DNA from: Psychrobacter sp. 4Dc
Lineage (GTDB): Bacteria; Pseudomonadota; Gammaproteobacteria; Pseudomonadales; Moraxellaceae
Length of the DNA stretch: 64,000 bases
Reading direction: 5' to 3'
Assembly (NCBI RefSeq): GCF_002836715.1
Contig: NZ_PJAT01000123.1
Span: 1 to 64,000, forward strand
Below, piece by piece: positions 1,722 to 61,813 of the stretch; the stretch's first letter is position 1, and every line of letters starts with the position of its first letter. The position numbers were made by a program, and so were the translations under genes. The notes under the pieces were generated by a model. The model did not search any database. It was not told the origin of the DNA and saw nothing but the letters and a program-made list of their open reading frames with translations.

Positions 1722-2996
1722 CTACATAAACGGCAATTTGGTAAATATCTGCAATATCGTGGCATTGACGATATCAACAAAGAACGCACCTACCATCGGT
1801 ACGATTAGGAATGCTTTAGGTGAAGGCAAATAGCGATCAGTGACTGCCTGCATATTTGCAATTGCAGTCGGTGTCGCACCCATACCAAAACCACAATGAC
1901 CCGCTGATAATACAGCTGCGTCATAGTCTTTACCCATAATCTTAAAGGTAATCAGGTAAACGTAGATAATCATAATGATGGTCTGTACGACCAATATAAT
2001 TAGTACAGGACCCGCCAAATCGGTCAACTGCCAAAGTTTTAGAGACAATAATGCCATCGCTAGAAATAGGCTTAAAGACGCATTACCAAGTACATCAATT
2101 GAGCGGTCAAACATATCAAAATTGAAGACCATCGTTAGCACATTGCGAATGATAACACCACCTGCCAATGCCCATACGAAAGTAGGCAGCTCAAACCAGG
2201 TACCTTCAGCAACGATGGCCATCACATCGGCAAAAGCCAAAGCACCTGCGAATAGTGCCAAGGTTTCGATAGTAGAAGAAGCGGTGATAAAGCGCATGCT
2301 ATCAGGCCTTTCAAAGATATCTTTATTACTACCTGCAGACTCCTCATCGTGTTTGGTACTATATAACGACTGTGCACCAGCAACTTTTTCGATATCGCTA
2401 GGATCAGGGTTGGCTGGCGTTGGTTTTAGTCCAAGTCGGTTAATCAAGCGACGGGCAACAGGACCACCAACGATACCACCCGCGACCAAACCATAAGTAG
2501 CAACCGCGATACCAAGCGTCGTCGCACCGACCACACCATAGTCTTGTTCTAACGTAATGCCCCAAGCGCCTGCTGTACCATGACCACCTGTTAGAGCGAT
2601 AGACCCTGTCACCAGACCGAGCAAAGGATCAAGTCCCAATGCACTTGCCATGGCCACACCCACGACATCCTGCAATACAATAAACACTGATACAACGATA
2701 GTAAAAATCAATAATGGTGTGCCGCCTGCTTTTAGCCTACTAAAATCAGCGCTCAGACCGATGGAGGCAAAGAACATCAACATGGTGGCGGTCTGCAGCC
2801 CTTGATGAAAGTTAAAACTATATCCCCAAACCATATTGAGAGCATAGACAACAATCGCCGCGACCAAACCACCAGCAACCGGTTCTGGAATATTAAAGTC
2901 TTCTAAAAACTTGACTCTCCGCACCAAAAACCGCCCAAGCAGCAGCACTAAGGTGGCCAATATCAGGGTGTAATAACCGTTTAAGGTAATCTCCAT
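1722..2996 (-). CDS. gltS: Sodium/glutamate symporter GltS
   Basis: At 424 aa it matches GltS, a secondary Na+/glutamate importer of the inner membrane. The N-terminus (MEITLNGYYTLILATLVLLLGR) and the FNIPEPVAGGL and GLVTGSIALTGGHGTA segments are typical. The latter is the first of two glycine-rich re-entrant loops; the second appears as LSAGHCGFGMGATPTA near the C-terminus. About ten hydrophobic helices are separated by a polar central loop (about residues 195-230). An AGGA site lies 8 nt before the ATG at 2996. It is monocistronic, since the upstream gene on the same strand is separated by a long inverted repeat. Confidence 0.95.
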   Translation of the reverse strand: MEITLNGYYTLILATLVLLLGRFLVRRVKFLEDFNIPEPVAGGLVAAIVVYALNMVWGYSFNFHQGLQTATMLMFFASIGLSADFSRLKAGGTPLLIFTIVVSVFIVLQDVVGVAMASALGLDPLLGLVTGSIALTGGHGTAGAWGITLEQDYGVVGATTLGIAVATYGLVAGGIVGGPVARRLINRLGLKPTPANPDPSDIEKVAGAQSLYSTKHDEESAGSNKDIFERPDSMRFITASSTIETLALFAGALAFADVMAIVAEGTWFELPTFVWALAGGVIIRNVLTMVFNFDMFDRSIDVLGNASLSLFLAMALLSLKLWQLTDLAGPVLIILVVQTIIMIIYVYLITFKIMGKDYDAAVLSAGHCGFGMGATPTAIANMQAVTDRYLPSPKAFLIVPMVGAFFVDIVNATILQIFTKLPFM

Positions 2997-3132: not shown

Positions 3133-3552
3133 CTAACTTTCTAACGTATAAGCTTCATCCTCAGATGGCACGATGATCCACAATTGTGGTTTGCCAAATT
3201 CTCTAAAGGCATCCTCAATGATGCTTTTAAAGACATTGAAGTCCTCAGTATTTATCCTTTTGACGTCTGTCAAATTCAGCTTTAAATGAATTGCCTCACT
3301 GTCTGTTAGACAATCCCATGCACTGTCCCAGTTGTGTGAAAAATAACTGGGGAAGTCACAGGCCTTGGCCAAACTCGTCAATAACTCAGTTTTCTCGAGC
3401 GTGTCACCTACGGCTATAGTAACAGCCTGCGCAGGAATGCTAGTACCCAGTGCTGTACCGTTTTGGTTAATGTGGTTTTGATTAATATGGCTTTGATTAA
3501 CGTAGTGGATTGCTTGGTTTATACTGTCTCGATTCATATCAGCTTTTTTCAT
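3133..3552 (-). CDS. Barstar-family ribonuclease inhibitor
   Basis: The C-terminal ~90 residues match barstar, the intracellular inhibitor of barnase-type RNases: ELLTSLAKACDFPSYFSHNW, then DSAWDCLTD, then a beta strand of hydrophobic residues (LHLKL-type) and a final LWIIVPS strand. The start chosen is ATG 3552 (MKKADMN), 1 nt after the stop of the upstream RNase gene. It has an AGGTG site inside the end of that gene and would give 139 aa. A longer frame opens at 3585 but overlaps the RNase gene. About 40 residues precede the barstar fold and include a short NQxHI repeat. Tight coupling to an RNase Sa-like gene suggests a toxin/inhibitor pair. The inhibitor role is inferred from family and context. 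Confidence 0.85.
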   Translation of the reverse strand: MKKADMNRDSINQAIHYVNQSHINQNHINQNGTALGTSIPAQAVTIAVGDTLEKTELLTSLAKACDFPSYFSHNWDSAWDCLTDSEAIHLKLNLTDVKRINTEDFNVFKSIIEDAFREFGKPQLWIIVPSEDEAYTLES

Positions 3553-3553
3553 A

Positions 3554-4300
3554 TTAAGGCACCTGTAGTCTTTGGAAGCTATCATAATGGTCGACAGTCA
3601 AGTAATAGACGGTAGGCGGATTACCACCTGTGACGATACGCCGTGCGCCGCGATGAGAGACACCAGGGGTGGGTACGGTATATTCGCGGTAGTAGCCTTG
3701 TGACTGAGCGGGTAGTCTGCCTTCACGGTTATAAAACGTCGTACCATCTTTATTTGGATACGGAAAAGGGCCGCCTTGCTGAATAAGCGCAATCGTGTTA
3801 TCGACCTGTGCATCACCTGTTATACCAGCAGTAGTGGTTTGGCTCGTATTATTAGTGACGTCCTGCGATACCGTTGTCGACTCGATGCTATCAGCAAACA
3901 ATGTCGAATTTAAATCGCCAAAGAAATAGAAAGCGACGGCGATGATAGCGATAAGGCTAAATAGCGTAGAGCCTAAGCTTCTTTTATTTGATCTGCTGTT
4001 TTGATTGCTACGATTTGAGTTACGAGTGCTGTGATGGCTATTTCTATTAGCAGGGGTATAGCTTGGAACATCTGATGCAGTATCTTGATCAAGGCTAAAC
4101 GAAGACGAGGTCACTTCAGTGGCTCTCAATTGATTTTTGTCGTTACGGGCACTGTTAAAGTAGACACTTTGACCAACTGTTATAGGCTTCGCCAGTCTTG
4201 CTTTGCTAATATGAAAGAACACATCTTCATTTTGATTATCTACATCGATAAAGCCATAGCCTTTATCTTCGTTCCAGTGCTTAATCTTGCCACTTTGCAT
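3554..4300 (-). CDS. Cold-shock domain / transmembrane / RNase Sa-like ribonuclease fusion
   Basis: Three parts are visible in 248 aa. Residues 1-65 are a cold-shock domain with RNP1 (KGYGFI, 13-18) and RNP2 (DVFFHIS, 26-32). Residues ~66-107 form a Ser/Asn/Arg-rich linker. A hydrophobic helix spans ~111-128 after a basic RSNKR, predicting N-terminus in the cytoplasm and C-terminus in the periplasm. Residues ~165-248 match guanyl-specific RNase Sa/T1-type enzymes (GGPFPYPNKDGTTFYNREG; REYTVPTPG; GARRIVTGG; DHYDSF). The RNase Sa catalytic triad Glu54/Arg69/His85 aligns with Glu206, Arg221 and His238. No RNase Sa disulfide cysteines are seen. A barstar-family gene follows at once. Activity and topology are predictions; the architecture is read directly. 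Confidence 0.85.
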   Translation of the reverse strand: MQSGKIKHWNEDKGYGFIDVDNQNEDVFFHISKARLAKPITVGQSVYFNSARNDKNQLRATEVTSSSFSLDQDTASDVPSYTPANRNSHHSTRNSNRSNQNSRSNKRSLGSTLFSLIAIIAVAFYFFGDLNSTLFADSIESTTVSQDVTNNTSQTTTAGITGDAQVDNTIALIQQGGPFPYPNKDGTTFYNREGRLPAQSQGYYREYTVPTPGVSHRGARRIVTGGNPPTVYYLTVDHYDSFQRLQVP

Positions 4301-4358
4301 GGTCGTACCGCTCCCTATAATTTAAATGCCTTAACTAAAATACTTATGATTCAAACGA

Positions 4359-4388
4359 AGAAACGCCAGCATAATTGCTGACGTTTCT
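4359..4388. terminator. Hairpin terminator downstream of proA
   Basis: Arms AGAAACGCCAGCA and TGCTGACGTTTCT pair with one mismatch around TAAT. On the minus strand the stem is followed by a T-rich tract (TTTCTTCGTTT). It separates proA from the RNase gene on the same strand. Confidence 0.65.
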
Positions 4389-4421
4389 GATTACTCGTTT
4401 TGATAGTCGATGCTAGTATGA

Positions 4422-5723
4422 TTAAGCACGGGTTTCGCCATGACCATAAACGATCCATTTTTGCGACGTCAGACCTTCGAGACCGACAGGGCCACGGGCA
4501 TGGATTTTGTCCGTTGAGATACCAATTTCAGCACCGAGACCGTATTCGAAACCATCAGCAAAACGGCTAGAAGCGTTAATCATAACGCTGGCCGAGTCAA
4601 CTTCACGGATGAAGCGTTGCGATTTGGTATAGTTGTCAGTGATGATAACATCGGTATGATGGCTGCCGTGCGTATTGATATGCTCAATCGCCTCGTCAAT
4701 ACCTGCGACCACTTTTACCGCTAGGATAGGAGCTAAATATTCAGTATCCCAATCCTCAGCCGTGGCAGCGGATAAATGACCTTCAAGCTTAGCGTTTTCA
4801 TTTAGGATAGCTTGTGATTTGTCATCAAGGCGTAGTTGCATTGCGTCATCAGCAGCGACGATGGCTTCTGCTATTTTAGGTAATAGCTCATTAGCGACTG
4901 CTTCATCAACCAGTAGCGTCTCCATCGTGTTACAAGTGCCGTAGCGATGCGTTTTGGCATTGACGCTGACTTTAATCGCAATCTCAGGATCTGCATCACT
5001 ATCAATAAAGGTATGGCAGTTGCCGTCTAAATGCTTGATCACAGGGACTTTTGCATCGTTACTGATACGAGCAATCAGACCTTTACCGCCACGTGGCACG
5101 ATGACATCGACGTATTCAGTCATGGTAATCAGCTCACCAACAGCGGCGCGATCGGTCGTCTGTAGCACTTGTACGCTATGTTCTGATAGATCAGTATGGC
5201 TAAGTCCTTTAATGATACATTTGGCAATTGCTTGGTTAGATTCAAATGCTTCAGAACCACCACGCAAGATAATAGCATTGCCTGATTTGAGTGCCAGTGA
5301 GGCAGCCTCTAAAGTCACATTAGGGCGCGACTCATAAATCATACCGACTACGCCAAGTGGCACCCGCATTTTGCCCAAATGAATCCCTGATGGCTGATAG
5401 GTCATGTCAGTGACTTCACCGATTGGATCAGGAAGACCAGCGACATCTTTAAGACCTTGTAGCATACCGTTAAATCGTGCTTCGTTTAGCTCTAAGCGAT
5501 CGAGGAGTGCGCTATCAAGATTGTTTTTTTGGCCGTTGTCCATATCGATTTTATTGGCTGCCAAGATGTCTTGTTTGGCATTGACCAGCTCATCATGAAT
5601 GGCCAAGAGTGCTGAGTTTTTATCGCCAGTGTTGGCGGCAGCCAGCGCGCGAGAAGCAGCTCTTGCTTGCTTGCCGACAGACTGCATATAGGTCGTAATA
5701 TCCGTAGTATTCGATTGACTCAT
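4422..5723 (-). CDS. proA: Gamma-glutamyl phosphate reductase ProA
   Basis: This cytoplasmic enzyme makes glutamate-5-semialdehyde from gamma-glutamyl phosphate with NADPH, the second step of proline synthesis. Its 433 aa is close to family length. The [15 protein letters not shown] stretch (about 127-141), the catalytic cysteine in [12 protein letters not shown] (Cys264) and the C-terminal [22 protein letters not shown] region are all conserved. The ATG at 5723 is preceded by an AAGGAAAA-type site. proB is not adjacent, which is common in this group. Confidence 0.97.
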
Positions 5724-6601: not shown

Positions 6602-6806
6602 GTACTCCGGTTTGTTAGAAGCTGATTAACCCGTTGGTTAAATACAATATTTGCCTTTTTACTGCGTAATAAGAGACAATATGGCATTTTTCTCCTTGCC
6701 TCATCAGGCATATTACGATAATGCATCTAGATGCTTGTACTATATATAGATATAGCTCTTATTTTATTCGTGTTTTCACTCATATTTATTGGAAGTCTGC
6801 TAAACC

Positions 6807-7604
6807 ATGCTTGATACTGCAAAAAACCCGACTCGGCCTATCGCCCTAGACTTACAAGACATCCATAAAAGCTACGGCTCATTAGAGGTACTAAAAGGGG
6901 TATCCTTGACTGCCTATGATGGCGATGTTATCTCTATTTTGGGCTCATCTGGCTCAGGTAAGTCGACGTTGCTGCGTTGTATTAATCTTCTAGAAAACCC
7001 CAATCATGGTCGTATCTTGATCGGTAATGAAGAGCTGATGCTAAAACCTGCCAAATCAGGTGAGTTACAAGCGGCAGACGTAAAGCAGCTAGAAAGCTTG
7101 CGCGCTCGCGTCGGGTTTGTCTTTCAGAACTTTAATCTATGGCCGCACAAGACCATTTTGCAAAACATCATCGAAGGGCCAACGCAGGTCTTAAAGATTA
7201 AAAAAGACCAAGCGATTAGCGATGCAGAAAAGTTGCTCGATAAAGTCGGCCTGCTCGACAAAAAAGATGCTTATCCTGCCAACTTATCTGGTGGTCAGCG
7301 TCAGCGTGTCGCAATTGCCCGTGCGCTTGCTATGCAGCCACAAGTTCTATTATTTGATGAACCAACCTCTGCACTAGATCCTGAACTGGTCAACGAAGTG
7401 CTTGCGGTAATGCGCGAGCTAGCAGAAGAGGGGCGTACAATGCTTATCGTTACTCACGAAATGCGCTTTGCCCGTGAAGTATCAAGTAAAGTCGTCTTTT
7501 TACATCAAGGTGTGGTTGAAGAAATTGGCACACCTGAGCAAGTCTTTGATAACCCTACCTCTGAGCGCGTCAAAGACTTTATGGCATCGCATCGTCCTAC
7601 TTAG
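6807..7604 (+). CDS. Polar amino-acid ABC transporter ATP-binding protein
   Basis: This is the nucleotide-binding subunit of a HisP/ArtP/GlnQ-type importer, 265 aa. Walker A is GSSGSGKST (46-54), followed by the Q-loop ([11 protein letters not shown]), the signature LSGGQRQR (160-167), Walker [14 protein letters not shown] and the switch histidine in VTHEMRFA. It heads a locus with three binding lipoproteins and two permeases, so it probably energises all of them. Basic amino acids (Lys/Arg/His/ornithine) are the likely substrates, judging from the binding proteins. That is inference. Confidence 0.93.
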
Positions 7605-7933
7605 TTATTAGTTTTTTACCTAGTATCATGTCCAATACAGATGGTGGCAACATTCTTGCCGCCATTTGCCCTGCAAACGTAAAATCACTGTAACGTAACC
7701 ATTGTTGACTGTTTATTGCCCAATGATAACTATGAGTATGCAAAACGTTTGTTTTTGATATTTTACTCAGGTATTATCAAAAGGTTTATAGGCCGTCACG
7801 TCTCGTGGCTGTCTGTTATTCTGCTATCTATATTGCTTGTCTGGCAGGGACGTCAGAGAACAAAATATCAGAACCCTAAGTCAGAAAATCCTGTCAAAAA
7901 CTTATGTAAAACCCATCAGAATTTAAGGAACGT
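7605..7933. other. Intergenic region with a GC-rich hairpin
   Basis: This 329-bp spacer lies between the ATPase gene and the first binding-protein gene. It holds a 10-bp hairpin (7641-7665, ATGGTGGCAA / TTGCCGCCAT, one G-U) with no T tract, which might attenuate or stabilise the mRNA. A 73-codon frame here looks non-coding. Confidence 0.45.
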
Positions 7934-8734
7934 ATGATGTCGAATTCTCGCCTATTGTGGTCATCGATGACCGTTACTGCTGCATTGATGTTGAGCGCTT
8001 GTAGCCAACCTGCCGATGAAACTACCGATACCAACGCTAACGCCCCTGCAGCAGAAACCACTGGTAAAACCATTCGTATCGCTACCGAAGGCGCTTACCC
8101 TCCATTCAACTACACCAACGCCGACGGCAGCTTGGCAGGTTTCGATATCGATGTTGCCAACGCATTGTGTGATCAAATGCAAGCCAAGTGTGAAATCGTT
8201 GCACAGGACTGGGACGGTATCATCCCTGGTCTATTGGCGCAGAAATATGATGCGGTGATTGCAGGTATGTCTATTACTGCTGAGCGTCAAGAGAAAGTTG
8301 ATTTCAGCGAGCCGTACTTTGCTAATACGATGGTATGGTTGACCAATACGGATGGTGGTTTTGATCCTATGGCGATTAAAGATGCAACGCTTGGTGGTCA
8401 ACGTTCTACTACGCCAGGTGCTTATCTACAGGATAACTACGAAGGCAAAGAAGGCAACACAGTTCAGTTATATGACAACTATGACAATGCCTATCTAGAT
8501 CTAAAATCTGGTCGTAGCGATGCCGTATTGGCTGAAAAAGTGTCTGCCAAATCATGGTTAGCAGAAAACGCAGCGGGCTTCGGTATCGTTGGTGATGAAA
8601 TTGATAACGATGACAATATTGCCATTGCTGTACGTAAAGGTGACTCACTCAAAGCTGACTTTGACAAAGCATTGAGCGAAATCCGTAGTAACGGTGAGCT
8701 TGCACGTCTTGAGCAGATGAACTTTGGTCAATAA
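7934..8734 (+). CDS. Amino-acid ABC transporter substrate-binding lipoprotein (paralogue 1)
   Basis: This is a 266-aa member of the HisJ/ArtJ binding-protein family. The lipobox LSAC places the lipid on Cys23. The mature domain opens with IRIATEGAYPPFNYT and carries the ligand-site features GFDIDVANAL, AQDWDGIIPGL, AGMSITAERQEKVDFS and YDNAYLDLKSGRSDAV. An AAGGA site precedes two adjacent ATGs (7934 and 7937); the second has the better spacing. It is the first of three tandem paralogues, and probably captures a basic amino acid in the periplasm for the ATPase and permeases nearby. Confidence 0.92.
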   Translation: MMSNSRLLWSSMTVTAALMLSACSQPADETTDTNANAPAAETTGKTIRIATEGAYPPFNYTNADGSLAGFDIDVANALCDQMQAKCEIVAQDWDGIIPGLLAQKYDAVIAGMSITAERQEKVDFSEPYFANTMVWLTNTDGGFDPMAIKDATLGGQRSTTPGAYLQDNYEGKEGNTVQLYDNYDNAYLDLKSGRSDAVLAEKVSAKSWLAENAAGFGIVGDEIDNDDNIAIAVRKGDSLKADFDKALSEIRSNGELARLEQMNFGQ

Positions 8735-8886
8735 TGACTCACTGAAGATTTATGCTTAGAACAAGTAACGTTTGATACAAGTAATGCTTAAAACGAAGTA
8801 TGTTTCAAATAAACGGTGTTTATAAGTATAAATCAGCAAGCAGTGATTGACGATACAGCTGGTAAATATATTAAGGAATAAAACTT

Positions 8887-9783
8887 ATGACAATTTCAAT
8901 GACATCATCAATGAGCAAAAAAGCATTGTGGCTAGCACCGCTTAGCGCAGCAATGCTAATGCTGGCAGGTTGTAACAATAGCTCAGCACCAGCAGAAAAT
9001 GCTGAAGCTGACACCGCTACTGAAGCGCCTTTAAATATCAAAATTGCGACAGAATCAAGCTATAAGCCTTTTAGTTATACCGATGCAGATGGCAAGCTGA
9101 TTGGTTATGAGATTGAGCTGGTTGACGCATTATGTGCGCAAATGAAAGCTGAGTGTGAAGTCATCTCTCAAGATTGGGATGGTTTGATTCCAGGGCTTAA
9201 CGCACAGAAATTTGATGCAGCTATCGCAGGTATGTCTATCACGCCTGAGCGTAAAGAAGTGGTTGATTTCAGTGACCCTTACTTCCATAGCGGTATCATC
9301 TTGATCGGCAAAAAAGGTGATGACTTAAGCGTTGAGTCGCTAACAGGTCTACCAATTGCCTCACAGCGCTCAACTGTTGCCTCGCAATACCTACAAGACG
9401 AGCATGCAGATGCTGATATCAAGTTATATGATACGCAAGACAATGCTTATCTAGATCTAACCTCAGGTCGCGTGCGCGGTATGATGTCTGACAAAGTCAC
9501 AGGTATTGACTGGTTAAAAACAGACGCAGGCAAAGGCTACGAAGTCAAAGGTGAAGAAATCAGCACCAATGATGATGCGATGGGTATTGCCTTCCGTAAA
9601 GGCGATCCGTTAGTTGCTAAGTTCAATGCAGCATTAGCTGAACTAAAAGACAATGGCACCTATGATCAAATCACGGGTAGCTACTTTGGTACTAGCTCAA
9701 CGGCTGCTGCGCAAAAAGCTGTGGCAACAACTGATAGTGTCGAAGAAGTAATGGTCGCTGAAGAAGAAGCGCCAGCTAACTAA
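8887..9783 (+). CDS. Amino-acid ABC transporter substrate-binding lipoprotein (paralogue 2)
   Basis: This 298-aa paralogue of the preceding gene has lipobox LAGC (Cys29). The IKIATESSYKPFSYTDADG start, SQDWDGLIPGL, AGMSITPERKEVVDFSDPY and YLDLTSGRVRGMMSDKV motifs of the HisJ family are present. It differs by an acidic, Ala-rich C-terminal tail of about 30 residues after the solute-binding fold (ending EEEAPAN). An AAGGA site lies about 10 nt upstream. The changed pocket residues relative to its neighbours suggest a different preferred ligand, which is unproven. Confidence 0.92.
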   Translation: MTISMTSSMSKKALWLAPLSAAMLMLAGCNNSSAPAENAEADTATEAPLNIKIATESSYKPFSYTDADGKLIGYEIELVDALCAQMKAECEVISQDWDGLIPGLNAQKFDAAIAGMSITPERKEVVDFSDPYFHSGIILIGKKGDDLSVESLTGLPIASQRSTVASQYLQDEHADADIKLYDTQDNAYLDLTSGRVRGMMSDKVTGIDWLKTDAGKGYEVKGEEISTNDDAMGIAFRKGDPLVAKFNAALAELKDNGTYDQITGSYFGTSSTAAAQKAVATTDSVEEVMVAEEEAPAN

Positions 9784-9855
9784 TACGATATCTAGCAGTT
9801 CGACTGCTGTTGTTTGAAGACGTGTTGTTTACTCAAGAAAAAACCAAGGATGATC

Positions 9856-10803
9856 ATGAGCAACCATTGTGCCCCAATCTGTACCACGACTGGCAAATCT
9901 AACATTACTGTAGCCAGTCGTTTGTCTATGTCACTGCTTGCGCTAGCGACGGCCTTTACCGTTGCTGGCTGTAGCAATAGCCAAGAGAGTGCGGCTGATA
10001 CCAATCCAGAGGCTACCGAAACAACGGCAGCCTCTACAGGTGATGTATTACGCATCGGTACAGAAGGGGCCTATGCGCCTTTTAACTATACCAATGCCGA
10101 TGGGACACTGGGTGGTTTTGATGTTGAGATAGCAAATGCACTCTGTGCTGATATGCAGGTGACCTGTGAGATTGTGGCGCAGGACTGGGACGGTATTATC
10201 CCTGGTCTAAAAGCAGGTAAGTATGATGCAATCGTGGCCGCGATGTCCGTTACTCCAGAGCGTTCGCAGCAGGTGAGCTTTACCGATCCGTACTTTAGCA
10301 ATGCCTTGGTCTTTTTGGCCAAAAAAGACAGCAGCTTTGACCCTAGTAACAACAGCGATATCGACTCGCATTCTATTGCTGCACAGCGTTCAACCATTTC
10401 ATCGCAGTGGCTAGAAGACACGTATCCAAAAGCCGATATGAAGCTTTATGATACGTTGAGCAATGCGTTTTTGGATCTCGGTTCAAACCGTGTCGATGCG
10501 ATGATTTCTGATAAGCTGCCTGCCATAGAATGGCTGAGCTCAAATGCTGGTAGCAAATATGCGCTTAAAGGTGATGAGATCGATATCAATGATAACTTTG
10601 CCATAGCAGTACGCCCAGGCGATCCGCTACAAGCAAAGATCAATCAGTCTCTTGCTAATATAAAAGCTAATGGTACTTACGATAAAATCAATCAAAAGTA
10701 CTTTGCGGTGCCAGCGTCTGCAACGAGCACAGTTGATGAAGACGCAAATACAGGCACAGATACAAATACTGCCGACCAACCAGCGACAGAAAACGTTAGT
10801 TAA
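9856..10803 (+). CDS. Amino-acid ABC transporter substrate-binding lipoprotein (paralogue 3)
   Basis: This third HisJ-like paralogue is 315 aa from the chosen ATG at 9856, which sits 5 nt after AAGGA. A longer frame opens at 9814 without a ribosome site. The N-region is long and unusual (two cysteines before the hydrophobic core), and the lipobox is VAGC (Cys39). The mature fold has LRIGTEGAYAPFNYTNADG, AQDWDGIIPGL, AMSVTPERSQQVSFTDPY and AFLDLGSNRVDAMISDKL. It ends in a ~30-residue Thr/Asp/Asn-rich tail. A terminator follows, so the permease genes downstream are probably transcribed separately or by read-through. Confidence 0.9.
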   Translation: MSNHCAPICTTTGKSNITVASRLSMSLLALATAFTVAGCSNSQESAADTNPEATETTAASTGDVLRIGTEGAYAPFNYTNADGTLGGFDVEIANALCADMQVTCEIVAQDWDGIIPGLKAGKYDAIVAAMSVTPERSQQVSFTDPYFSNALVFLAKKDSSFDPSNNSDIDSHSIAAQRSTISSQWLEDTYPKADMKLYDTLSNAFLDLGSNRVDAMISDKLPAIEWLSSNAGSKYALKGDEIDINDNFAIAVRPGDPLQAKINQSLANIKANGTYDKINQKYFAVPASATSTVDEDANTGTDTNTADQPATENVS

Positions 10804-10853
10804 TAGCTAACAGTAGTCAAAGATAGCAGTCAAGAAATATTGTTTTGATTAAT

Positions 10854-10888
10854 AAAAGGATATCACCATCATGGTGATGTCCTTTTTT
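10854..10888 (+). terminator. Rho-independent terminator after the binding-protein genes
   Basis: An AAAAGGA-TATCACCAT / ATGGTGATGTCC-TTTTTT stem has a minimal loop and T6. It splits the transporter locus into two transcription units. Confidence 0.85.
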
Positions 10889-11239
10889 ATTTGTCGTTAT
10901 ATCAAAGAATATACATAATAGCCGCCTATCAATTTTGCTCAAATTTAGTCGGCTTATTGTATGTCTCTAGAGGCAAGTGTCTGTTTAAGTACGGTTTAGG
11001 CGCAGCTTTTACGCGTCAGTATTAACATCACGGCGAGTGAATATGATAAAATCAGCGCTCATTTCTACTGTGTCAATTATCGCAGCATTAATCGTATTCT
11101 TCTGACGTCATTTTTTGACGCCGACCATCCCTATTGATTTGGTATAAAATACGGTGTTTCGCCGCGTTCAGCTATTGATGCTGATTCTTTTAACTCATAT
11201 TTTGCAAATTGCTAATATAAAGAGACTGAGTGGATAATC
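10889..11239. other. Intergenic region before the permease genes
   Basis: About 350 bp lie between the terminator and the first permease gene. The region is AT-rich and presumably carries a promoter for the permease pair. No gene, RNA or clear operator was recognised. Confidence 0.5.
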
Positions 11240-11974
11240 GTGTTTGACTTACAAGGATTTGGCGCGCTTTTATTAAGCGGCGCTACCGTCACTATACAGC
11301 TAGCTGTGACCAGTTTGATCATTGGTCTGGCTTTAGGCTTGCTCGGCGCAACCGCAAAGATGTCCAATATCTGGTTGCTGCGTAAACTTGCGACTGTCTA
11401 TACTGCGACGATGCGCGGTATTCCTGAGCTGCTATTGGTGCTCTTTATCTATTATGGCGGCTCTATCTTATTGATGAGCATCCTCAAAAAGTTCGGCTAT
11501 AACGACTATGTCGAAATTAGCGCTTTTTGGGGTGGTGTCATGGCACTGTCTATTGCTTTTGGTGCGTATGCGACTGAGATTTTTCGCATGTCCATTCAAG
11601 AGATTCCAGTAGGGCAGCGAGAGGCTGCGCAAGCGATTGGTATGCGTCCTTTTCAGACTTTTTATCGCATCACTTTGCCGCAAGTGTGGCAGATTGCTTT
11701 ACCAGGTTTGGGAAATTTATTTCTGGTACTACTCAAAGATACCGCATTGGTATCGGTCGTGGGTCTCAAGGACATCATGTATCAGTCATCGCGTGCGGCA
11801 CAGTCTACACAGCAGCCGTTTACCTTTTATATGGCAGCAGCGATTATTTATTTGGGTCTGACCATGTTGATTACTGGCTTTATGATGTGGCTTGAGTGGC
11901 GCGCCAATCCTGCGGCACGCTATGCTAAAAAGATAAGCCGCCAATCCACTCACAGTCAATCGACCATAGGGTAG
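11240..11974 (+). CDS. Amino-acid ABC transporter permease (HisQ/ArtQ type)
   Basis: This 244-aa inner-membrane permease starts at GTG 11240, with a GAGTGG site 6 nt upstream. It has about five hydrophobic helices and the EAA loop contacting the ATPase (REAAQAIGMRPFQTFYRITLPQ). The MRGIPELLLVLFIYYG stretch is typical of the HisQ/GlnP branch. The partner permease follows after 12 nt, and the two form the heterodimeric channel for the binding proteins upstream. Confidence 0.92.
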   Translation: MFDLQGFGALLLSGATVTIQLAVTSLIIGLALGLLGATAKMSNIWLLRKLATVYTATMRGIPELLLVLFIYYGGSILLMSILKKFGYNDYVEISAFWGGVMALSIAFGAYATEIFRMSIQEIPVGQREAAQAIGMRPFQTFYRITLPQVWQIALPGLGNLFLVLLKDTALVSVVGLKDIMYQSSRAAQSTQQPFTFYMAAAIIYLGLTMLITGFMMWLEWRANPAARYAKKISRQSTHSQSTIG

Positions 11975-61248: not shown

Positions 61249-61614
<366 letters not shown>

Positions 61615-61693
61615 TTTTTTATTGTTTGTTATAGTAATAGTTGCAATTAATCTGAATTAAATTCATTTTTTTGCAAAAAATGCTTATTAGGGG

Positions 61694-61736: not shown

Positions 61737-61813
61737 GGCGATGTAGCTCAGCTGGTTAGAGCGCATGACTCATAATCGTGAGGTCAAGAGTTCAAGTCTC
61801 TTCATCGCCACCA
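61737..61813 (+). tRNA. tRNA-Met (anticodon CAT), elongator type
   Basis: This 77-nt cloverleaf has acceptor GGCGATG / CATCGCC, D arm GCTC...GAGC, anticodon stem CATGA / TCGTG with loop CTCATAA, T arm AAGAG / CTCTT with TTCAAGT, and an encoded CCA. The overall match to elongator Met tRNA is close. A CAT anticodon could also be tRNA-Ile2 (lysidine), which seems less likely. An A/T-flanked terminator follows. Confidence 0.93.

What the first reader, a model, noticed from the sequence alone, without database searches (positions are those of the whole stretch)
3133..4300. Membrane-anchored RNase Sa-like enzyme fused to a cold-shock domain, coupled to a barstar inhibitor
The sequence shows a cytoplasmic nucleic-acid-binding domain (RNP1 KGYGFI, RNP2 DVFFHIS), one membrane helix and an RNase Sa-type domain with the full catalytic set (Glu206, Arg221, His238). 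A barstar-family gene starts 1 nt after its stop. RNase Sa and T1 enzymes are normally secreted and single-domain, and barstar protects the cytoplasm from them. A cold-shock domain on the other side of the membrane is hard to explain by simple RNA scavenging. It could sense or hold RNA, be a released toxin, or act on imported or foreign RNA.
Basis: partly seen in the sequence, partly recalled or inferred. Interest (0 to 1): 0.75.

Follow-up and report, generated by a model that had tools for sequence, protein, structure and literature searches.

The report
Membrane-tethered RNase with cold-shock domain, barstar
A cold-loving bacterium carries an RNA-cutting enzyme that appears to sit outside the inner membrane on a tether whose inner end is an RNA-binding cold-shock domain, with the gene of the enzyme's inhibitor directly behind it; the parts are known, the combination is unusual, and what the cold-shock domain does is still a guess.

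Summary
The host is Psychrobacter. 82 of 105 genomes of the genus carry the locus; CSD and RNase share a frame in 78 of 82, with Glu/Arg/His invariant in those 78. None of the 22 genomes without PF00545 has an intact barstar. The CSD is under purifying selection nearly as strong as the RNase's (dN/dS 0.09, 0.07); the linkers are not (0.5-0.6). The fusion also occurs in five Pseudomonas/Stutzerimonas genomes and one other family. Unfused RNase-barstar pairs are commoner (48 of 55 loci examined), and P. celer has lost just the CSD.
Best reading: a tethered periplasmic guanyl RNase, barstar guarding the cytoplasm, on a CSD-helix module shared with DUF1294 and Excalibur proteins. The CSD's role is inferred. 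New variant of a known kind; little supports a delivered toxin.

The parts
3554..4300 (-). CSD-TM-RNase Sa fusion gene (248 aa, stop 3554-3556)
   Evidence: Pfam CSD + Ribonuclease; model and fold match
4103..4300 (-). cold-shock domain, residues 1-66 (KGYGFI, DVFFHIS)
3977..4102 (-). basic, low-complexity linker, residues 67-108, predicted cytoplasmic
   Evidence: variable across 76 homologues, dN/dS about 0.6 for 67-107; positive net charge before the helix
3920..3976 (-). single transmembrane helix, residues about 109-127
   Evidence: the one segment with mean hydropathy over 1.6 in 76 of 76 homologues; N side more positive in 76 of 76
3827..3919 (-). variable linker, residues 128-158, predicted periplasmic
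   Evidence: dN/dS 0.48 for 129-158; pLDDT under 50
3557..3826 (-). RNase Sa-type (N1/T1) catalytic domain, residues 159-248
3683..3685 (-). catalytic Glu206 codon
   Evidence: invariant 78 of 78
3638..3640 (-). catalytic Arg221 codon
   Evidence: invariant 78 of 78
3587..3589 (-). catalytic His238 codon
   Evidence: invariant 78 of 78
3560..3564 (-). AGGTG, Shine-Dalgarno-like, inside the RNase's last codons, before barstar ATG
   Evidence: AGG, GGA or GAG within 14 nt before the stop in 80 of 82 loci, a loose pattern without a chance control
3133..3552 (-). barstar-family inhibitor gene (139 aa)
   Evidence: PF01337 E 9e-12; D76, W79, D80 align with Asp35, Trp38, Asp39 of barstar (numbering of 1ay7_B)
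4360..4387 (-). conserved hairpin between proA and the RNase gene, terminator-like; suggests that the pair has its own promoter
   Evidence: stem conserved in the upstream alignment of 76 loci; the strict terminator scan found none in the window
4422..5723 (-). proA, conserved upstream neighbour (not part of the system)
   Evidence: before the RNase gene on the same strand in 63 of 66 named Psychrobacter loci
1722..2996 (-). gltS, usual downstream neighbour (not part of the system)
   Evidence: after the pair in 56 of 66 named loci (52 by the script, 4 more by its printed coordinates)

Best explanation
A periplasmic, guanyl-specific endoribonuclease is tethered to the inner membrane by an N-in/C-out signal anchor whose cytoplasmic end is a cold-shock domain. 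Barstar, encoded directly behind it, stays in the cytoplasm and blocks any RNase that has not yet crossed the membrane. The active enzyme cuts RNA in the periplasm (own leaked or foreign RNA), filling the place that RNase I has in E. coli. The CSD, on its flexible basic linker, most likely binds single-stranded RNA at the inner face (for example the translating mRNA of this protein or nearby mRNAs), which would help translation and membrane insertion in the cold. Shown: domains, folds, intact catalytic residues, gene order and co-occurrence with barstar, selection on the CSD, charge bias. Inferred: topology, activity, inhibition, periplasmic RNA turnover. Guess: what the CSD binds and why (about 0.3 on its own).
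For: Domains and folds. Catalytic residues 78 of 78. Topology: one hydrophobic segment and a more positive N side in 76 of 76 (mean +5.5 against -3.0). The 83 genus genomes with a PF00545 match are the 83 with a barstar match, 22 have neither. Start codon 1 nt after the stop in 78 of 82. Unfused relatives with barstar adjacent: 54 of 55 non-Psychrobacter loci examined have barstar. RNase T2 (RNase I family) in 1 of 105 Psychrobacter genomes, a partial match. CSD dN/dS 0.093 beside linkers at 0.5-0.6. Fused CSDs group with CSD-DUF1294 and Excalibur CSDs, apart from free Csps (100/99). A solved complex of RNase Sa and barstar exists (1ay7, chains A and B).
Against: No activity, localisation or RNA-binding data. 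Psychrobacter celer keeps helix, RNase and barstar without the CSD, and 48 of 55 other loci are RNase-barstar pairs without it, so the CSD is not needed for such a pair. All 22 genus genomes without this RNase have no RNase T2 either (the one T2 match is in G262, a carrier), so these two families are dispensable together. dS is near saturation (medians over 1), so dN/dS values are rough. The helix is modelled at low confidence. Two aromatic positions of the Csp nucleic-acid face (roles recalled) are H8 and I31 here.
Confidence: 0.6

Rival explanations
1. Toxin-immunity or suicide system: the RNase is let loose in the cytoplasm on a trigger (phage, cold, envelope damage) when barstar is lost, or is delivered to competitors; the CSD is the sensor.
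For: RNase-first, inhibitor-second gene order and shared presence and absence. Barnase-like domains with Imm-barstar are known in polymorphic toxins (PMC3482391, passages), and one Psychrobacter genome has an RNase of this family at the end of a CDI-like protein. Defence-linked CSD models hit this CSD: PADLOC CSD_V (E 1e-8) and NCBIfam retron Se72 effector (E 1e-6, far below its cut-off).
Against: Charge pattern predicts export of the RNase domain. Syntenic beside proA in 63 of 66, RNase dN/dS 0.066 without diversification, no delivery domain found, no relative found in viral contigs; the defence hits cover only the CSD, as ordinary CSD similarity would.
Confidence: 0.15
2. The CSD is only a handy N-terminal folding and anchoring unit gained by fusion (from a CSD-DUF1294-type gene); no RNA binding matters and the system is an ordinary RNA scavenger.
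For: P. celer lost the CSD cleanly, keeping MQSGK and then linker, helix, RNase and barstar. Unfused pairs are common (48 of 55 loci examined).
Against: CSD kept over the genus at dN/dS 0.093, with Y15, F17, F28, F29, H30 in 75-77 of 78 rows, while the flanking linkers drift. The same arrangement is found in Pseudomonas and in family f151, perhaps by a separate fusion.
Confidence: 0.2
3. Membrane RNA-handling post for taken-up or extracellular nucleic acid: the RNase trims RNA in the periplasm and the CSD receives fragments or incoming strands on the inner side.
For: Domain order places an RNA cutter and an RNA binder on opposite sides; a CSD also sits on Excalibur and DUF1294 membrane proteins.
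Against: The usual neighbours are proA and gltS, not competence or transport-of-nucleic-acid genes; no RNA importer is known to me.
Confidence: 0.05

Closest known systems
RNase Sa / Sa2 / Sa3 (guanyl-specific N1/T1 RNases, Pfam PF00545)
   Same: Catalytic domain, active-site residues, fold.
   Different: The solved proteins are single domains of 96-99 residues; here the domain stands behind a CSD and a helix.
Simple barnase-barstar gene pairs (PMC3482391) and the balifase operon (PMC5021464)
   Same: RNase gene followed directly by its barstar gene; in balifase one operon (passages seen).
   Different: The unfused pairs seen here begin with signal-peptide-like, anchor-like or lipobox-like N-termini instead of CSD + linker + helix (read by eye).
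CSD-DUF1294 and CSD-Excalibur membrane proteins
   Same: N-terminal CSD of the same clade, basic linker and hydrophobic segment, Pfam domains; one CSD-DUF1294 lies in this genome (L005).
   Different: C-terminal part is DUF1294 or Excalibur, not an RNase.
Free cold-shock proteins (CspA, CspB, CspC)
   Same: Fold and RNP motifs.
   Different: Free 66-70 aa proteins; a separate clade from the fused CSDs (100/99).
CDI/polymorphic toxins with barnase-like C-terminus
   Same: PF00545 domain followed by a barstar-like gene (below Pfam's cut-off), as in G083.
   Different: Large exoproteins; this locus has none of that.

Membership tests
RNase N1/T1, Sa branch (PF00545) | match over curated cut-off across the domain | tested here: met
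   78 bits against cut-off 24, profile 10-97 of 98
RNase N1/T1, Sa branch (PF00545) | catalytic Glu, Arg, His | tested here: met
   E206, R221, H238 in 78 of 78; roles recalled
RNase N1/T1, Sa branch (PF00545) | RNase Sa fold | tested here: met
RNase N1/T1, Sa branch (PF00545) | guanyl-specific RNA cleavage | not testable with these tools
   needs an assay
Cold-shock domain (PF00313) | match over cut-off with RNP1 and RNP2 and OB fold | tested here: met
Cold-shock domain (PF00313) | binds single-stranded RNA or DNA | not testable with these tools
   motif residues conserved, binding unmeasured
Barstar (PF01337) | match over cut-off | tested here: met
   45 bits against 23.4
Barstar (PF01337) | acidic inhibitory residues (Asp35, Asp39 of barstar; roles recalled) | tested here: met
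   D76 and D80 align and stand in 79 of 82 Psychrobacter rows
Barstar (PF01337) | inhibits the neighbouring RNase | not testable with these tools
Polymorphic/CDI toxin | large delivery protein with C-terminal toxin | tested here: not met
   248 aa with CSD, helix and RNase domain only
Known anti-phage defence system (PADLOC) | RNase part or inhibitor matches a PADLOC model at E 0.01 | tested here: not met
   only the CSD part hits a model, CSD_V; the barstar hits none

The most novel reading that the evidence does not exclude
The CSD-linker-helix is a portable transmembrane RNA-sensing module: RNA bound on the cytoplasmic face sets the insertion, stability or clustering of the extracytoplasmic domain (RNase Sa, Excalibur, DUF1294), so that cold-induced changes in cytoplasmic RNA control a periplasmic enzyme. 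The fusion to RNase Sa would have arisen more than once.
Probability: 0.12. Interest if true: 0.78.

Novelty: new variant of a known kind. Interest (0 to 1): 0.5.

Why it matters
It joins an RNA binder and an RNA cutter, predicted to lie on opposite sides of one membrane, in a single conserved protein with the inhibitor's gene behind it. If the CSD has a regulatory role, this would be a way for RNA inside the cell to act on an enzyme outside it. It also points to membrane-tethered cold-shock domains (on DUF1294, Excalibur and RNase proteins) as a little-studied class: searches of the held PMC library for CSD with DUF1294, Excalibur or barstar gave no paper, and the 15 papers with barstar and 'cold shock' are unrelated by their listing. 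P. celer, which lost only the CSD, offers a natural comparison.

Tried and rejected
Inverted topology (CSD outside) was set aside on charge (76 of 76), without experiment. Mobile element or phage origin: the viral scan matched 21 stretches by pattern and none encodes a relative; in plasmids 16 records match, none over 80% of the protein. A strict swap with RNase I: not supported, since RNase T2 is missing also in the 22 genomes without this RNase. Single origin of the fusion: in the RNase tree the Pseudomonas fusions lie beside unfused Halomonas copies (93/88), away from Psychrobacter, but one clade of the fused rows is not rejected (AU p 0.105; there the L032 row was a wrong ORF picked by my script, and L102, L089, L103 and L101 are long branches). 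In the CSD tree one clade is not rejected either (p 0.42; 67 columns only). One or two origins stay open. Conserved operator upstream: beyond the hairpin the 76-row alignment shows no strong block. Phage families: a generic CSD hit and a hit of part of barstar (E 7e-7) to a phage family of unknown function.

Limits: the genome draws overlap. One search kept the best 80 of 118 matches. Five matches had no locus and were not examined; one of the 55 loci (L103) begins inside the frame at a contig end, so its N-terminus is unseen; the barstar profile was widened on the same loci. In one search two DUF1294 loci (L245, L246) gave no CSD row and are not in the tree, and the DUF1294 label of L199 is by eye. 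Nine Psychrobacter genomes have a second barstar match elsewhere, not studied. Signal peptides, anchors and lipoboxes of unfused relatives were judged by eye. Rfam found nothing at the locus.

Full report

TOPOLOGY. In 76 full-length Psychrobacter proteins there is exactly one segment with mean hydropathy over 1.6, and the 25 residues before it are more positive than the 25 after it in 76 of 76 (means +5.5 and -3.0). By the positive-inside rule the CSD is cytoplasmic and the RNase periplasmic. This is a prediction.

DISTRIBUTION IN THE GENUS. Named relatives (66 of the 80 loci kept, of 118 matches, are Psychrobacter, best 96% identical) show that the window is Psychrobacter. PF00545 is found in 83 of 105 genomes of the genus; one of these (G083) has it only in a CDI-like protein in a frame of 1469 aa, so 82 carry this locus. 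In 78 of the 82 the CSD is in the same frame; two of those 78 frames begin within the CSD (L031, L045). Of the other 4, one has a stop between CSD and RNase (L030), one is cut by the contig end (L034), one is fragmented (L088), and one, P. celer (L074 = L171), has lost the CSD cleanly: its protein starts MQSGK and runs on into linker, helix and RNase, and the other frames show no CSD. A barstar match lies downstream on the same strand in 82 of 82. PF01337 is matched in 83 of 105 genomes, the same 83 (in G083 below the cut-off); none of the 22 without RNase has a match. Nine genomes have a second barstar match elsewhere.

GAIN AND LOSS. proA lies before the RNase gene on the same strand in 63 of 66 named loci. 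gltS follows the pair in 56 of 66: 52 by the script's rule, and 4 more (L142, L147, L160, L167) by the printed coordinates, which the rule missed because those loci are short; in L154 and L157 gltS lies between proA and the RNase gene, and the divergent strains of L166 and L168 show neither gene. All 22 genomes without the pair have proA. Between proA and gltS, degraded pieces of barstar remain in 3 of 22 (L217, L221, L223), with an RNase piece in L217. On a proA tree of 84 rows (62 carriers, 22 non-carriers; quick method), 15 of the 22 lie in outer lineages and 7, including those three, lie in two places within the carriers; the fewest changes are 3, and the count cannot tell gain from loss. 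The remnants do show loss, of the RNase and barstar together in L217, as expected if barstar is only needed with the RNase.

COUPLING. An ATG/GTG sits 1 nt after the RNase stop in 78 of 82 loci and directly at it in 2 (position only); AGG, GGA or GAG lies within 14 nt before the stop in 80 of 82, a loose pattern without a chance control. A hairpin conserved between proA and the RNase gene looks like the proA terminator, although the strict scan called no terminator; the pair may have its own promoter.

SELECTION. Nei-Gojobori dN/dS medians over pairs of 76 sequences: CSD 0.093 (603 of 2850 pairs usable), cytoplasmic linker 0.60 (702), helix 0.15 (1187), periplasmic linker 0.48 (782), RNase 0.066 (1380). 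dS is near saturation, so I trust the order more than the values. The CSD is thus kept almost as strictly as the enzyme. Y15, F17, F28, F29 and H30 stand in 75 to 77 of 78 rows.

OUTSIDE THE GENUS. Family draw: 84 of 299 genomes have PF00545; outside the genus only G029, with a short unfused RNase and barstar. Class draw: 15 of 369 including the window; 1 of the other 14 (G446, family f151) has CSD-helix-RNase-barstar. Order draw: 14 of 390, of which 3 outside the genus, none fused. Phylum draw: 32 of 388. Named genomes give five more fusions: Pseudomonas oryzagri, P. sp. A-1, P. sagittaria, P. linyingensis and Stutzerimonas stutzeri K1 (Pfam run on two of the five). Of 55 non-Psychrobacter loci examined, not a random sample, 54 have barstar next door (L104 does not) and 6 have the CSD. 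By eye, unfused ones start with signal-peptide-like or anchor-like segments, in at least two cases with a lipobox-like motif (L183, L274). So an exported or tethered RNase Sa with barstar is the common Gram-negative kind here, and the CSD is the variant. A review already noted widely distributed simple barnase-barstar pairs as a possible incipient toxin-immunity order (PMC3482391, passages seen); balifase of Bacillus licheniformis is in one operon with its inhibitor and is induced by phosphate starvation (PMC5021464, passages seen).

WHERE THE CSD COMES FROM. With a profile of fused CSDs, the three best other CSDs in 185 genomes are those of membrane proteins: two CSD-DUF1294 (one in this genome, L005) and one CSD-Excalibur (L190); free Csps follow. 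In a tree of 36 CSDs the 12 free Csps are split from the 24 fused, DUF1294 and Excalibur CSDs with support 100/99. Most simply, the RNase received its CSD from that membrane-tethered class. Whether the fusion happened once or twice is open.

FUNCTION. Psychrobacter mostly lacks the RNase I family (RNase T2 in 1 of 105, a partial match; the control search rings in E. coli), so this enzyme may be its broad periplasmic RNase. It is dispensable over evolution: 22 of 105 have neither. I consider RNA turnover in the periplasm with barstar as cytoplasmic guard the most likely function, and the CSD as an RNA-binding tether at the inner face that is kept in Psychrobacter but can be lost. A delivered toxin or defence role finds little support.

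IN PRINT. Full-text searches of the held PMC library gave 0 papers for 'cold shock domain' + ribonuclease + barstar, Psychrobacter + barstar, 'cold shock domain' + DUF1294, 'cold shock domain' + transmembrane + excalibur, and membrane + 'cold shock domain' + Psychrobacter + ribonuclease. 'barstar' + 'cold shock' gave 15 papers, unrelated by listing; the 8 papers hold no DUF1294. Subscription papers are mostly not covered, and protein databases may list the architecture.

VERDICT. Confirmed observation, partly supported interpretation, new variant of a known kind; interest 0.5.

Noticed in passing
L171 (Psychrobacter celer), 4001-4495 +: Clean natural loss of the CSD: MQSGK is followed directly by linker, helix, RNase and then barstar.
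   Followed up: yes
L089 (G083), 7056-11429 - and 6646-7056 -: CDI-like exoprotein ending in an RNase Sa-type domain, followed by a barstar-like gene (below Pfam's cut-off) and a further exoprotein-like ORF; this genome lacks the tethered RNase.
   Followed up: partly
L186 (E. coli IncC plasmid), 5001-5650: RNase Sa-like stretch without annotation in the PLSDB table (which is incomplete), directly before an annotated barstar gene, in a region with IS elements and mer genes.
   Followed up: no
L172-L176 (Pseudomonas, Stutzerimonas), about 5150-5500 -: A free cold-shock gene lies convergent just downstream of barstar in all five loci; by tree it is not the source of the fused CSD.
   Followed up: partly
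L190 (G329), 1153-1722 -: CSD + basic linker + helix + Excalibur domain, another use of the same N-terminal module.
   Followed up: partly
window 61249-61615 + and 61737-61813 +: RNase P RNA followed by tRNA-Met; ordinary.
   Followed up: no
window 7934-8734 + and 8887-9783 +: Two similar ORFs that look like amino-acid binding proteins in tandem after an ABC ATPase-like ORF; named by eye, not searched.
   Followed up: no
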